Below, piece by piece: positions 7,136 to 13,596 of a stretch of 64,000 bases of DNA (position 1 is its first letter; each line of letters starts with the position of its first letter). The notes beneath the pieces were generated by a model. The model was not told where the DNA came from. It worked only from the letters and a program-made list of their open reading frames with translations, and did not search any database. The stretch lies in NCBI RefSeq assembly GCF_000013385.1, contig NC_007760.1:1799001-1863000 (forward strand). Direction: 5' to 3'. The position numbers were made by a program, and so were the translations under genes. Origin of the DNA: Anaeromyxobacter dehalogenans 2CP-C (GTDB taxonomy: Bacteria; Myxococcota; Myxococcia; Myxococcales; Anaeromyxobacteraceae).

Positions 7136-8458
7136 TTGAAAAAGAACTTCGTCCTCGACACCAACGTCCTGCTCCACGATCCGCGCAGCATCTTCGGCTT
7201 CGGAGACAACGACGTCGTCATCCCCATCTACGTGATCGAGGAGGTCGACAACTTCAAGCGCGACCTCTCGACGCTCGGCCGCAACGCGCGCCAGGTCTCG
7301 CGCTCGCTCGACGAGTTCCGCGCCCGGGGCAAGCTGCGCGAGGGCGTGCCCATCGGCGACGCCCACGGGCACCTCCGCGTGCTGGTGGCGGAGCACAAGC
7401 TCCCGCACGGCGTCGGGAACGGCCACACCATCGACGACCAGATCCTGGCGGTGGCGCTGGAGCTGGCGCAGCGCGAGCAGGACACCCCCACCGTCTTCGT
7501 CACCAAGGACACCAACCTCCGCATCCGCGCCGACGCGCTCGGGCTCCACGCCGAGGACTACGACGTCGAGGGCGTGGTGCTCGACGAGCTGTGGAGCGGC
7601 AGCTCGGTGCTGGACGTCTCGCCGGAGGACGTGAACGCGTTCTACGCGGGCGGCGCGCTGCCGGCGGAGGAGGGGCGCGAGCCGCCCCCGCCGAACGCGT
7701 TCGTGGTGCTGCGCGATCGCACCAACCCGCAGCACTCGGCGGTGGGGAAGTACAGCGCCTCGAAGCAGGCGTACGTGCCGCTCATCAAGACGCCGAAGGA
7801 GGGCGTCTGGGGGATCCGGCCGCGCAACAAGGAGCAGTCGTTCGCGCTCGACCTGCTGCTCAACGACGAGGTGCGCCTGGTCACCATCGTCGGCAAGGCC
7901 GGCACCGGCAAGACGCTGCTCGCCATCGCCGCCGGCCTGCAGAAGACCATGGAGGACGGCGTCTACCAGAAGATGCTGGTCTCCCGGCCGATCTTCCCGC
8001 TGGGCCGCGACCTCGGCTACCTGCCGGGCTCGGTGGAGGAGAAGCTCAACCCCTGGATGCAGCCGATCTTCGACAACGTCGAGTACCTCATGAACCTGTC
8101 GCGCTCGGAGAAGAAGGCCGGGCGCGGGTACCACGAGCTGCTCGACCTGGGCATCCTCGAGATCGAGCCGCTCACGTACATCCGCGGCCGCTCGATCCCC
8201 AACCAGTTCATCATCGTGGACGAGGCGCAGAACCTGACGCCGCACGAGGTGAAGACCATCATCACGCGCGTCGGCGACGGGACCAAGATCGTCCTCACCG
8301 GCGACCCGTACCAGATCGACAATCCCTACGTGGACCAGACCAACAACGGCCTCATCCACGTGGTGAACCGCTTCATGCACGAGCGGCTGGCCGGGCACAT
8401 CACGCTGGAGAAGGGCGAGCGCAGCCCGCTCGCGGAGCTCGCTGCGAATCTATTGTAA
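7136..8458 (+). CDS. PIN domain-PhoH ATPase fusion protein (YlaK type)
   Basis: A 440-residue fusion of an N-terminal PIN ribonuclease-like domain (residues 1-130; FVLDTNVLLHD and a TKDTNLRIRA segment with the conserved acidic residues) and a C-terminal PhoH-like ATPase. Walker A is GKAGTGKT at about 253-260, Walker B is FIIVDEAQNL, and the sensor segment is KIVLTGDP. This architecture is shared with Bacillus YlaK and mycobacterial PhoH2, an RNA helicase/RNase. A TTG codon is the only suitable start before the PIN motif. A tandem repeat block begins two bases after the stop codon. Confidence 0.92.
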   Translation: MKKNFVLDTNVLLHDPRSIFGFGDNDVVIPIYVIEEVDNFKRDLSTLGRNARQVSRSLDEFRARGKLREGVPIGDAHGHLRVLVAEHKLPHGVGNGHTIDDQILAVALELAQREQDTPTVFVTKDTNLRIRADALGLHAEDYDVEGVVLDELWSGSSVLDVSPEDVNAFYAGGALPAEEGREPPPPNAFVVLRDRTNPQHSAVGKYSASKQAYVPLIKTPKEGVWGIRPRNKEQSFALDLLLNDEVRLVTIVGKAGTGKTLLAIAAGLQKTMEDGVYQKMLVSRPIFPLGRDLGYLPGSVEEKLNPWMQPIFDNVEYLMNLSRSEKKAGRGYHELLDLGILEIEPLTYIRGRSIPNQFIIVDEAQNLTPHEVKTIITRVGDGTKIVLTGDPYQIDNPYVDQTNNGLIHVVNRFMHERLAGHITLEKGERSPLAELAANLL

Positions 8459-8460
8459 CG

Positions 8461-8935
8461 GGGCTGCGCCCCGCCCCACGGAGCGGAGCTCCGCGGGGCC
8501 CCACCCTGCTGCGCGGGGCCCGTGACCTCGCGCGCCCGCCTTCGCGGGCTCGCGCGCGGTCCCCGCGGGCGCGCCTGACGGCGCGCGGTCAGGGCCGCGA
8601 TCGACTCGTTCCGGGCTGCGCCCCGCCCCACGGAGCGGAGCTCCGCGGGGCCCCACCCTGCTGCGCGGGTCCCGTGACCTCGCGCGCCCGCCTTCGCGGG
8701 CTCGCGCGCGGTCCCCGCGGGCGCGCCTGACGGCGCGCGGTCAGGGCCGCGATCGACTCGTTCCGGGCTGCGCCGCGCCCCACGGAGCGGAGCTCCGCGG
8801 GCCCCACCCTGCTGCGCGGGTCCCGTGACCTCGCGCGCCCGCCTTCGCGGGCTCGCGCGCGGTCCCCGCGGGCGCGCCTGACGGCGCGCGGTCAGGGCCG
8901 CGATCGACTCGTTCCGGGCTGCGCCGCGCTCCACC
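8461..8935. repeat. Three tandem copies of a 152-bp structured repeat plus a partial fourth
   Basis: Units span 8461-8612 (152 bp), 8613-8764 (152 bp) and 8765-8915 (151 bp), followed by about 20 bp of a fourth copy. The copies differ at only a few positions. Each unit contains a 12-bp palindrome (GCGGAGCTCCGC, 8483-8494 in unit 1), a hairpin GCCCGC-CTTC-GCGGGC (8534-8549), and a hairpin CCTGAC...GTCAGG (8574-8593). The block fills nearly the whole 496-bp gap between the PhoH-like gene and the DUF493 gene. Open frames across it shift from copy to copy because 152 is not a multiple of three, so it is probably not coding. Confidence 0.93.
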
Positions 8936-8954
8936 CGCGGATAGGTTGCTCCCG

Positions 8955-9242
8955 ATGACGAACCGGGCCGATCCCACGCCGCCGGCCGCGCCGGCGCTCG
9001 AGTACCCGCTCCGCTACACCTTCAAGGTGATGGGGCTGGCGGCCGACGACTTCGCCGAGCACGCGCGGCGGCTGGTGGCCCGCGGCGTGGGCGAGGCCCC
9101 GGCGATCGACGTGACCGTTCGCGCCTCGTCGGGCGGGAAGTACCACTCGGTGAGCGTGGCGGTGCGGCTGGAGTCGGAGGCGCAGCGGCGCGCGGTCTAC
9201 CAGCTGCTCTGGCAGGACGAGCGCGTCGTCTACTACCTGTGA
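8955..9242 (+). CDS. DUF493 (YbeD-like) protein
   Basis: A 95-residue protein of the DUF493/YbeD family, small ferredoxin-fold proteins of unknown role that in enteric bacteria lie near lipoate genes. Recognisable features are YPLRYTFKVMGLAADDF near the start, SSGGKYHSVSVAVRLES in the middle and LLWQDERVVYYL at the end. The ATG at 8955 is preferred over a TTG three codons earlier. The gene stands alone between the repeat block and a convergent lipid kinase-like gene, 7 bp from that gene's stop. Confidence 0.8.
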   Translation: MTNRADPTPPAAPALEYPLRYTFKVMGLAADDFAEHARRLVARGVGEAPAIDVTVRASSGGKYHSVSVAVRLESEAQRRAVYQLLWQDERVVYYL

Positions 9243-12654: not shown

Positions 12655-13596
12655 GTGCACCTCACGGTCCTGTCGCGCTCGAGCGAGATCTACACCACGC
12701 GCCGCCTGGTCGAGGCGGCGCGCGCCCGCGGGGTCCGCTCGCGGGTCGTCGATCCGCTCGAGGTGGAGATGGGGCTGTTCGACCAGGCGCCGCAGGCCTA
12801 CTGGCGCGGCAAGCGCTTCCCGCGCACCGACGTGGTCGTGCCGCGGATCGGCCTGTCCATCCACCAGTACGGCCTCTCGGTGGTGAACCAGCTCGAGCTG
12901 CTCGGGATCCCGGCGCTGAACGGCGCCTACGGCATCGCCGCCAGCCGCAACAAGATGCGCAGCCTGCAGATGCTCTCCGCCGCCGGCGTGCCGGTGCCGC
13001 GCACCGTCATGGCCAGCGACCCCTCCGGCCTGAAGGACATGGCGCGGCTGGTGGGCGGCGTCCCGGTGCTGGTGAAGCTGCTCTCCACCAGCGAGAAGTC
13101 GGGCGTGATGATCTGCGAGACGCTGCAGTCGCTGGAGGCGGCGCTCGAGGCCATCCTGGGCCTCGGCCAGAACATCGTGGTGCAGCAGTACCTGAAGGGC
13201 GCGAAGGGGCGGGACCTGCGCGCCCTGGTGGTGGGCGGCGAGGTCATCGCGGCGATGCGGCGGCGGCCGCCGGTCGGCCGCTTCTCGCGCAACCTGCGGC
13301 GCGGCGCGCAGTTCGAGCAGGTGAGCCTGCCGCCCGCCTACGCGCGGGCCGCCGCGCAGGCGGCCCGGGTGCTCCAGCTCGAGGTCTGCGCGGTGGACAT
13401 GCTCGACGTGAAGGGCACGCCGCGGGTCTTCGAGGTGAACTCCTCGCCCTCCATCCGCGAGGCGGAGACCGCGTGCGGCGTGGACGCCGCCGGGCGGATC
13501 GTGGAGCGCGCCATGGCGCTGGTGCGCCGCGGGAGCGCCCCGGCCGGCGCGGGGCGGCGCCGGCGCGACGGCGCGGCCGCGGCGGCGCGTCCCTGA
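12655..13596 (+). CDS. RimK-family ATP-grasp ligase
   Basis: A 313-residue ATP-grasp enzyme similar to RimK, which adds glutamate to ribosomal protein S6 or makes related amide bonds. Visible features are a RimK N-terminal fold (VLSRSSEIYTTRRLVEAA, VVVPRIG), the SRNKMRSLQMLSAAGVPVPRT segment, the ATP-binding VLVKLLSTSEKSGV, VVQQYLKGAKGRDLRALVVGG and the metal-binding VFEVNSSPSIREAE. The start is a GTG. The last 25 residues are Arg/Ala-rich and probably unstructured. It is a single-gene unit after dnaK, so the substrate cannot be inferred from context. Confidence 0.85.
   Translation: MHLTVLSRSSEIYTTRRLVEAARARGVRSRVVDPLEVEMGLFDQAPQAYWRGKRFPRTDVVVPRIGLSIHQYGLSVVNQLELLGIPALNGAYGIAASRNKMRSLQMLSAAGVPVPRTVMASDPSGLKDMARLVGGVPVLVKLLSTSEKSGVMICETLQSLEAALEAILGLGQNIVVQQYLKGAKGRDLRALVVGGEVIAAMRRRPPVGRFSRNLRRGAQFEQVSLPPAYARAAAQAARVLQLEVCAVDMLDVKGTPRVFEVNSSPSIREAETACGVDAAGRIVERAMALVRRGSAPAGAGRRRRDGAAAAARP

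What the first reader, a model, noticed from the sequence alone, without database searches (positions are those of the whole stretch)
8461..8935. 152-bp tandem repeat with conserved hairpins directly after a PIN-PhoH gene
Three near-identical units (152, 152, 151 bp) and a partial fourth start two bases after the stop codon of an RNA-acting PIN-PhoH protein. Each unit holds a 12-bp palindrome and two hairpins, one with a CTTC loop. Copy-to-copy changes are few, so they are recent or kept identical by recombination. They could be a family of structured RNA or DNA elements, or form the 3' end of the PhoH mRNA. Whether the unit occurs elsewhere in the genome is unknown to me.
Basis: partly seen in the sequence, partly recalled or inferred. 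Interest (0 to 1): 0.6.

Follow-up and report, generated by a model that had tools for sequence, protein, structure and literature searches.

The report
Stop-codon-hugging hairpin repeat family
The three repeats behind the phoH gene are one local tandem expansion of a 130-base, five-hairpin DNA element that is scattered 30-50 times through Anaeromyxobacter genomes, mostly starting within a few bases after a gene's stop codon; it resembles the REP/BIME repeats of other bacteria but lacks their usual hallmarks.

Summary
In detail: 3.1 units of 152/152/151 bp, 98% alike, begin right behind the phoH stop codon. It is not an isolated duplication. The unit belongs to a dispersed family: 33 covariance-model matches in this genome, 51 in the closest complete relative, present in all nine genus genomes searched, a few in sister genera, none in 36 other genomes of the order. 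Each unit is five consecutive hairpins. Arms change together between copies (covariation score 0.210 against 0.079 in shuffles), but whole hairpins are also exchanged as cassettes at fixed loci, so the covariation cannot be credited to RNA selection alone. In 50 of 87 loci the element starts within about 15 nt after a stop codon, in the gene's orientation (4.4% expected). Nine loci filled here are empty in a ~95% identical relative. The phoH array is specific to this strain and shares a 26-nt tail with one other locus, evidence of copying between loci. No RAYT transposase, reverse transcriptase, consistent terminal repeat, T-run or Rfam family was found with it. Best reading: a new REP/BIME-like family of mosaic 3'-end hairpin elements; its effect on mRNA is inferred, not shown.

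The parts
7136..8458 (+). phoH (PIN-PhoH ATPase/nuclease), gene whose stop codon TAA (8456-8458) abuts the array
   Evidence: Pfam PF13638 and PF02562; orthologues in 38 of 41 relatives
8459..8473 (+). hairpin 1 of unit 1: CGGGGC-TGC-GCCCCG, starts directly after the stop codon
8474..8498 (+). hairpin 2 of unit 1: CCCCACGGAGC-GGA-GCTCCGCGGGG (one A.C mismatch); contains the 12-bp palindrome
8505..8517 (+). hairpin 3 of unit 1: CCTGC-TGC-GCGGG (weakest covariation support)
8524..8561 (+). hairpin 4 of unit 1: GACCTCGCGCGCCCGC-CTTC-GCGGG-CT-CGCGCGCGGTC (one pair broken in this array, intact in most copies)
8569..8586 (+). hairpin 5 of unit 1: GCGCGCC-TGAC-GGCGCGC; variable between copies but nearly always a hairpin
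8587..8612 (+). 26-nt tail/spacer of unit 1, shared only with genome locus 2915792 and its orthologue in G004
8459..8612 (+). unit 1 of the array (with the two bases that complete hairpin 1)
8611..8764 (+). unit 2 (model match 8611-8719)
8764..8915 (+). unit 3 (model match 8764-8870), one base shorter, hairpins 1 and 2 slightly damaged
8916..8934 (+). partial fourth unit (hairpin 1 region)
8955..9242 (+). DUF493 (YbeD-like) gene, the next gene; separated from phoH by the array here, about 50 nt behind phoH in the relative without an intact element (G001)

Best explanation
The array is a strain-specific tandem expansion of a dispersed, lineage-specific repeat element of Anaeromyxobacter. The element is about 130 bp, five G+C-rich hairpins in a fixed order, usually placed directly behind a stop codon and in the same orientation as the gene. 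It spreads and turns over in the genome like REP/BIME repeats: copies appear and vanish at sites between close strains, hairpin cassettes are swapped between copies by recombination, and tandem arrays grow by unequal exchange or slippage. (Shown: family, position, turnover, cassette exchange, inter-locus copying. Inferred: enzyme and pathway.) The likely working of each copy, inferred from anatomy and from what is published for E. coli REPs, is a 3'-UTR hairpin block: hairpin 1 folds at the edge of the terminating ribosome, and hairpins 2-5 (three times over at phoH) shield the upstream mRNA from 3' exonucleases and reduce read-through into the next gene, here DUF493. It is not needed at phoH, since several relatives lack it there.
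For: Dispersed family: 33 model matches in the own genome, 51 in G004, present in 9/9 genus genomes, 0 in 36 genomes of other families of the order; the named hits of a pattern scan over all GTDB species are only Anaeromyxobacter. Position: 50/87 loci in four genomes, 22/35 in this genome, start within -4..15 nt of a same-strand stop codon, 4.4% expected (p about 1e-21 for this genome alone); convergent gaps enriched, divergent gaps depleted. Hairpins: 13 of 38 pairs change on both sides, covariation 0.210 vs 0.079 (0 of 500 shuffles), slid structures at most 0.046. Turnover: nine loci filled here are empty in G004, with native stop codon kept and the element directly behind it at 482101, 1231475, 4600885 and 1399339. 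Mosaic exchange at shared loci with 93-97% identical flanks: hairpin 4 at 4819184, hairpin 2 at 12746 and 2914061, hairpins 1-2 at 3979123. phoH in G004 has one copy 85% like this one; 26-nt tail shared with locus 2915792. Other arrays: 5 units at G004 3535183, 4 at 1955569, 3 at G007 4436757. Function by analogy: E. coli REPs within 15 nt of a stop stall ribosomes (as cited in PMC12306157); REPs of other species lie under 20 bp from ORF 3' ends (PMC3733652).
Against: No expression data. No mobilising enzyme found: no element near any of 28 Y1-transposase loci of the genus, no reverse transcriptase in the genome. The position could reflect survival of insertions rather than targeting or function. 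Several species lack the element at phoH, so it is dispensable there. The covariation comes largely from a small number of discrete hairpin types exchanged as units, so it does not prove RNA function; G-U intermediates are rare (90 two-sided versus 9 one-sided cells).
Confidence: 0.7

Rival explanations
1. Purely selfish or neutral palindromic repeats: the element is copied by recombination or template switching and survives best in the short gap behind stop codons, where it does no harm; it has no function for the host.
For: Rapid turnover between strains and species; cassette exchange; dispensable at phoH; intergenic gaps are short (median 100 nt), which leaves little other room.
Against: The distance to the stop codon is much sharper than free intergenic placement gives. 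Hairpins stay intact in most copies (95.9% of cells paired), although repair of imperfect palindromes by template switching could also do that.
Confidence: 0.4
2. Transcription terminator: the hairpins end transcription behind the gene, as an intrinsic terminator without U-tract or by helping Rho.
For: Position at gene 3' ends, preference for convergent gaps, very stable hairpins.
Against: No T-run follows any hairpin of the array; the only terminator-like site found (8430-8447) lies inside phoH. About half of the elements lie between codirectional genes. Intrinsic terminators a few bp behind a stop codon are strongly repressed by the ribosome (PMC4824070), although the distal hairpins would escape this.
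Confidence: 0.25
3. A true mobile element with target specificity for the position behind stop codons, moved by an unidentified enzyme; duplications of gene 3' ends around some copies are its insertion scars.
For: Empty sites. Direct repeats of the gene 3' end around inverted copies: 96 nt at G000 4848181, 77 nt at G004 4868220, 36 nt at G004 4028189, 71 nt at phoH of G010 and 39 nt at phoH of G002. Six near-identical copies of a compound element in G007.
Against: Duplication lengths vary widely and sense copies lack them; no consistent terminal inverted repeats in this genome; no linked transposase or reverse transcriptase. Template switching during replication or tandem duplication gives the same scars.
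Confidence: 0.25
4. A local duplication without relatives, as in the first reader's null hypothesis.
For: The tandem array itself is strain-specific.
Against: The unit occurs at more than 30 other places in the genome and across the genus.
Confidence: 0.01

Closest known systems
REP elements (repetitive extragenic palindromes; GTAG and CGTC super-families, Di Nocera 2013, PMC3733652)
   Same: Dispersed extragenic hairpins, mostly close behind ORF 3' ends (under 20 bp), between convergent and codirectional genes; lineage-specific families.
   Different: About 130 bp with five hairpins instead of a single 20-40 bp palindrome; no conserved GTAG or CGTC tag; 30-50 copies rather than over 100; no RAYT gene linked.
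BIMEs (bacterial interspersed mosaic elements)
   Same: Several hairpins in one intergenic unit, mosaic composition, exchange of hairpin modules, tandem arrays at some loci.
   Different: The modules are five different hairpins in fixed order and orientation, not REPs in alternating orientation.
MITEs and other short intergenic repeats (ERIC, BOX, Correia type)
   Same: Size range of 100-270 bp, no coding capacity, presence/absence differences between strains.
   Different: No consistent terminal inverted repeats or short target-site duplications in this genome. A compound form in G007 carries a 60-nt palindrome with CTAAAC...GTTTAG ends at its left side and ends in GTTTAG.
E. coli REPs within 15 nt of a stop codon that stall ribosomes (Liang, Rudd and Deutscher 2015, as cited in PMC12306157)
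   Same: A stable hairpin starting 0-11 nt behind the stop codon.
   Different: Effect untested here; different sequence family and host.

Membership tests
REP | Extragenic, close to ORF 3' ends | tested here: met
   50/87 loci within about 15 nt behind a same-strand stop codon, 4.4% expected
REP | Single 20-40 bp palindrome | tested here: not met
   About 130-bp unit with five hairpins in all full-length copies
REP | Unpaired GTAG or CGTC tag at one end | tested here: not met
   Bases before hairpin 1 vary (AACG, GACG, CACG, ACGA, GCGA); no GTAG or CGTC in the hairpin-1-to-hairpin-4 consensus
REP | RAYT (Y1) transposase flanked by the repeat | tested here: not met
   3 Y1 genes in the own genome and 28 in the genus, none with an element within 1.5 kb; CGTC REPs also lack one
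REP | Very high copy number (over 100) | tested here: inconclusive
   33 in G000, 51 in G004 at E<=0.01 and 0.001; the search scores a limited number of candidates, and diverged or solo hairpins exist beyond these
BIME | Mosaic combination of exchangeable hairpin motifs | tested here: met
   Whole-hairpin exchanges at orthologous loci between G000 and G004
BIME | Built of REP units in alternating orientation | tested here: not met
   Five different hairpins in fixed order
MITE | Terminal inverted repeats and short target-site duplications | tested here: not met
   No consistent terminal repeats in this genome; only 36-96 nt duplications around some inverted copies
Intrinsic transcription terminator | G+C-rich hairpin followed by a T-run | tested here: not met
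   No terminator-like site within the array
Known structured RNA family (Rfam 15) | Covariance-model match | tested here: not met
   0 matches up to E=5 in 8300-9100
Ribosome-stalling 3' hairpins | Ribosome pausing at the stop codon | not testable with these tools
   Position fits; needs ribosome profiling or reporters

The most novel reading that the evidence does not exclude
A previously undescribed class of mobile 3'-end element: a modular five-hairpin unit that is inserted precisely behind stop codons (a site of exposed nascent RNA or single-stranded DNA behind the last ribosome) by a mechanism that uses no known transposase or reverse transcriptase, sometimes duplicating 36-96 nt of the gene's 3' end, and that diversifies by swapping whole hairpins.
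Probability: 0.15. Interest if true: 0.75.

Novelty: new variant of a known kind. Interest (0 to 1): 0.5.

Why it matters
Dispersed palindromic repeats are mostly known from gamma- and alphaproteobacteria and are usually explained by RAYT transposases. This family shows strong stop-codon adjacency, cassette exchange of whole hairpins and visible gain/loss between close strains without any linked RAYT or reverse transcriptase, so it offers a natural system for asking how such repeats move and why they settle at gene 3' ends. Strain pairs with 0, 1 and 3 units behind the same phoH gene make the effect on phoH and DUF493 expression directly testable.

Tried and rejected
Rfam: no match. Viral contigs: no match for a conserved 27-nt core. 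RAYT link: Y1 genes of the genus carry no element nearby. Retro-mobility by a host reverse transcriptase: no RVT_1 match. Intrinsic terminator with T-run: not found. Idea that the element supplies the stop codon: rejected for the main family, since empty orthologous sites carry the same stop codon; it may hold for the separate 60-nt palindrome. Target-site duplications for sense copies: searched, none of 14 nt or more that flank the element closely (minus-strand loci were scanned in genome orientation, which does not affect direct repeats). The plain RNAalifold consensus of a mixed alignment missed hairpins because copy types differ in length; hence the explicit structure on a length-homogeneous subset. 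Literature: no paper found that names Anaeromyxobacter together with REPs or intergenic repeats.

Full report
OBSERVATION. The array is real: 8461-8934, period 152, 3.1 copies, 98% matches, by far the strongest tandem repeat of the window. Units 1 and 2 differ at one base, unit 3 by one substitution and one deletion. The first hairpin begins at 8459, immediately after the TAA (8456-8458) of a PIN-PhoH gene. The next gene is DUF493 (8955-9242).

FAMILY. A nucleotide search of the whole genome (5,013,479 bases, one contig; the size equals that of A. dehalogenans 2CP-C as I remember it, and the genus is confirmed by relatives such as A. oryzae Red232 and Anaeromyxobacter sp. PSR-1) finds more than 30 further places with 80-97% identity. 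A covariance model built from 35 copies gives 33 matches in this genome, 51 in G004, hits in all nine genus genomes, 12 in G010, 4 in G011, single hits in G016 and G022, and none in 36 genomes of other families of the order. Most copies cover unit positions 1 to about 128; the 26-nt tail that makes the 152-bp period is a spacer.

ANATOMY. Hairpin 1 CGGGGC-TGC-GCCCCG (variants CGAGGGC/GCCCTCG, CGGGGAC/GTCCCCG, CGGGGGAC/GTCCCCCG); hairpin 2 CCCCACGGAGC-GGA-GCTCCGCGGGG (many variants, including a longer one with CCCTGAGCTTGCCGAAGGG); hairpin 3 CCTGC-TGC-GCGGG; hairpin 4 GACCTCGCGCG-CCCGC...GCGGG-nn-CGCGCGAGGTC (variants GACCGCTCGCG, GAACCTGCGCG and others, with matching arms); hairpin 5 variable in sequence but nearly always a hairpin. 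On alignment A2, 95.9% of cells pair, 13 of 38 pairs change on both sides, covariation 0.210 against 0.079 +/- 0.006 (0 of 500 shuffles) and at most 0.046 for slid structures.

CAVEAT ON COVARIATION. Two-sided changes (90 cells) far outnumber one-sided ones (9), the reverse of what stepwise RNA evolution through G-U would give. At orthologous loci of G000 and G004, complete hairpins are replaced while neighbours stay identical: hairpin 4 at 4819184/4839022, hairpin 2 at 12746/13086 and 2914061/1532060, hairpins 1-2 at 3979123/4031075, the downstream half at 1651692/2778326. So pairing is kept partly because hairpins are exchanged as units; correction of imperfect palindromes by template switching could add to this. 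The data show that hairpins are the unit of inheritance; they do not decide between RNA and DNA.

POSITION. With a simple codon-usage gene finder, 22 of 35 loci here and 50 of 87 loci in four genomes begin within -4..15 nt of the stop codon of a gene in the same orientation; 4.4% of oriented intergenic positions would qualify (binomial p about 1e-21 for this genome). The pooled set includes loci shared by sister strains, so the single-genome value is the fair one. Convergent gaps hold 37% of elements against 16% of gaps; divergent gaps 9% against 18%. A minority lies inverted behind a stop codon.

TURNOVER. Nine loci filled in G000 are empty in G004 although flanks are about 95% identical (116542, 1231475, 3062918, 153681, 1399339, 4600885, 482101, 4712359, 2789499). 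In four of these the native stop codon is unchanged and the element sits directly behind it; downstream junctions are ragged. About 19 loci are shared by the two strains. Between more distant species only three of 21 sampled loci follow the same gene (ychF, an ABC-F gene, phoH; gene names from my reading of the sequences). This is more than chance (p about 0.001) and could be retention or a hot spot.

PHOH. G004 has one copy, 85% like unit 1. G001 has only a remnant-like hairpin and about 50 nt between phoH and DUF493. G007 has an inverted hairpin-4 region; G010 has an inverted copy flanked by a 71-nt duplication of the phoH 3' end; G002 has a 39-nt duplication of the phoH 3' end around a degenerate inverted copy recognised by eye only; G003, G005 and G006 have none. 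The 26-nt tail of the array (GGTCAGGGCCGCGATCGACTCGTTCC) recurs, with one difference, only at G000 locus 2915792 and, with a few more, in its G004 orthologue, where units are also in tandem. The simplest reading is that the phoH array was seeded or overwritten by copying from that locus. Independent arrays exist elsewhere: five units at G004 3535183, four at 1955569, three at G007 4436757.

MOBILISATION. Inverted copies can be flanked by long direct repeats of the gene 3' end (96, 77, 71, 39, 36 nt); sense copies are not. None of 28 Y1-transposase loci in the genus has an element within 1.5 kb; those in this genome have repeats of their own. No reverse transcriptase was detected. G007 carries six near-identical copies of a compound in which a 60-nt palindrome CTAAACCATGG...CCATGGTTTAG precedes hairpins 1-3 and the right end reads GTTTAG. 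A relative of that palindrome (CTGAACGACG...CGTCGTTCAG) precedes two G000 copies and is absent from the G004 orthologue of one of them. The mechanism is open.

FUNCTION. Established knowledge: E. coli REPs within 15 nt of a stop codon stall ribosomes (work cited in PMC12306157); REPs of several species lie under 20 bp from ORF ends (PMC3733652); an intrinsic terminator just behind a stop codon is repressed by the ribosome (PMC4824070). The array has no T-run. I therefore judge a general 3' hairpin block (protection against 3' exonucleases, reduced read-through, perhaps ribosome pausing) more likely than classical termination, and give nearly equal weight to a purely selfish element. None of this was tested.

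VERDICT. As a kind it is REP/BIME-like; as a member it fails the size, tag and RAYT criteria of REP and the alternating-REP criterion of BIME.

Noticed in passing
L097 and L098 (G000:C1 about 1192983 and 542860): Two similar 225-aa Y1 transposases in this genome are preceded by short repeats of their own (GGTGCCGGAGTC type), unrelated to the phoH element; they look like a separate RAYT/REP pair.
   Followed up: partly
L130, L131, L132, L133, L135, L137 (G007): Six near-identical copies of a compound repeat: a 60-nt palindrome with CTAAAC...GTTTAG ends, followed by hairpins 1-3 and ending in GTTTAG. In at least three copies the TAA of the left end serves as the stop codon of the upstream gene.
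   Followed up: partly
L062 and L060 (G000:C1 about 779260 and 2789499): A related palindrome CTGAACGACG...CGTCGTTCAG directly precedes the element; its first bases contain the stop codon TGA at 779260. It is absent at the G004 orthologue of 779260.
   Followed up: partly
L208 (G000:C1:4138430): A shortened element (hairpin 1 plus a GGCGGGCTCGCTCCGCTCGC hairpin) lies behind a stop codon a short way upstream of a sequence that reads like RNase P RNA. The same short form occurs at 911427 (L194) behind a T-rich terminator.
   Followed up: no
G000:C1 about 12746, 467793, 1399352, 2914061, 1453130, 4486182: In these copies hairpin 2 is replaced by a longer hairpin containing CCCTGAGCTTGCCGAAGGG or a near variant, which resembles hairpin motifs I recall from other proteobacteria; possibly a captured foreign REP.
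   Followed up: no
L051 (G000:C1:4848181) and L118 (G004:C1:4868220): A response-regulator-like gene end is duplicated (96 and 77 nt) on the far side of an inverted element.
   Followed up: partly
phoH 3' end in G000, G004, G007, G010, G002: Elements in either orientation occur behind phoH in several lineages; ychF and an ABC-F gene also carry elements in two species. Three genes linked to RNA or translation may be coincidence.
   Followed up: partly
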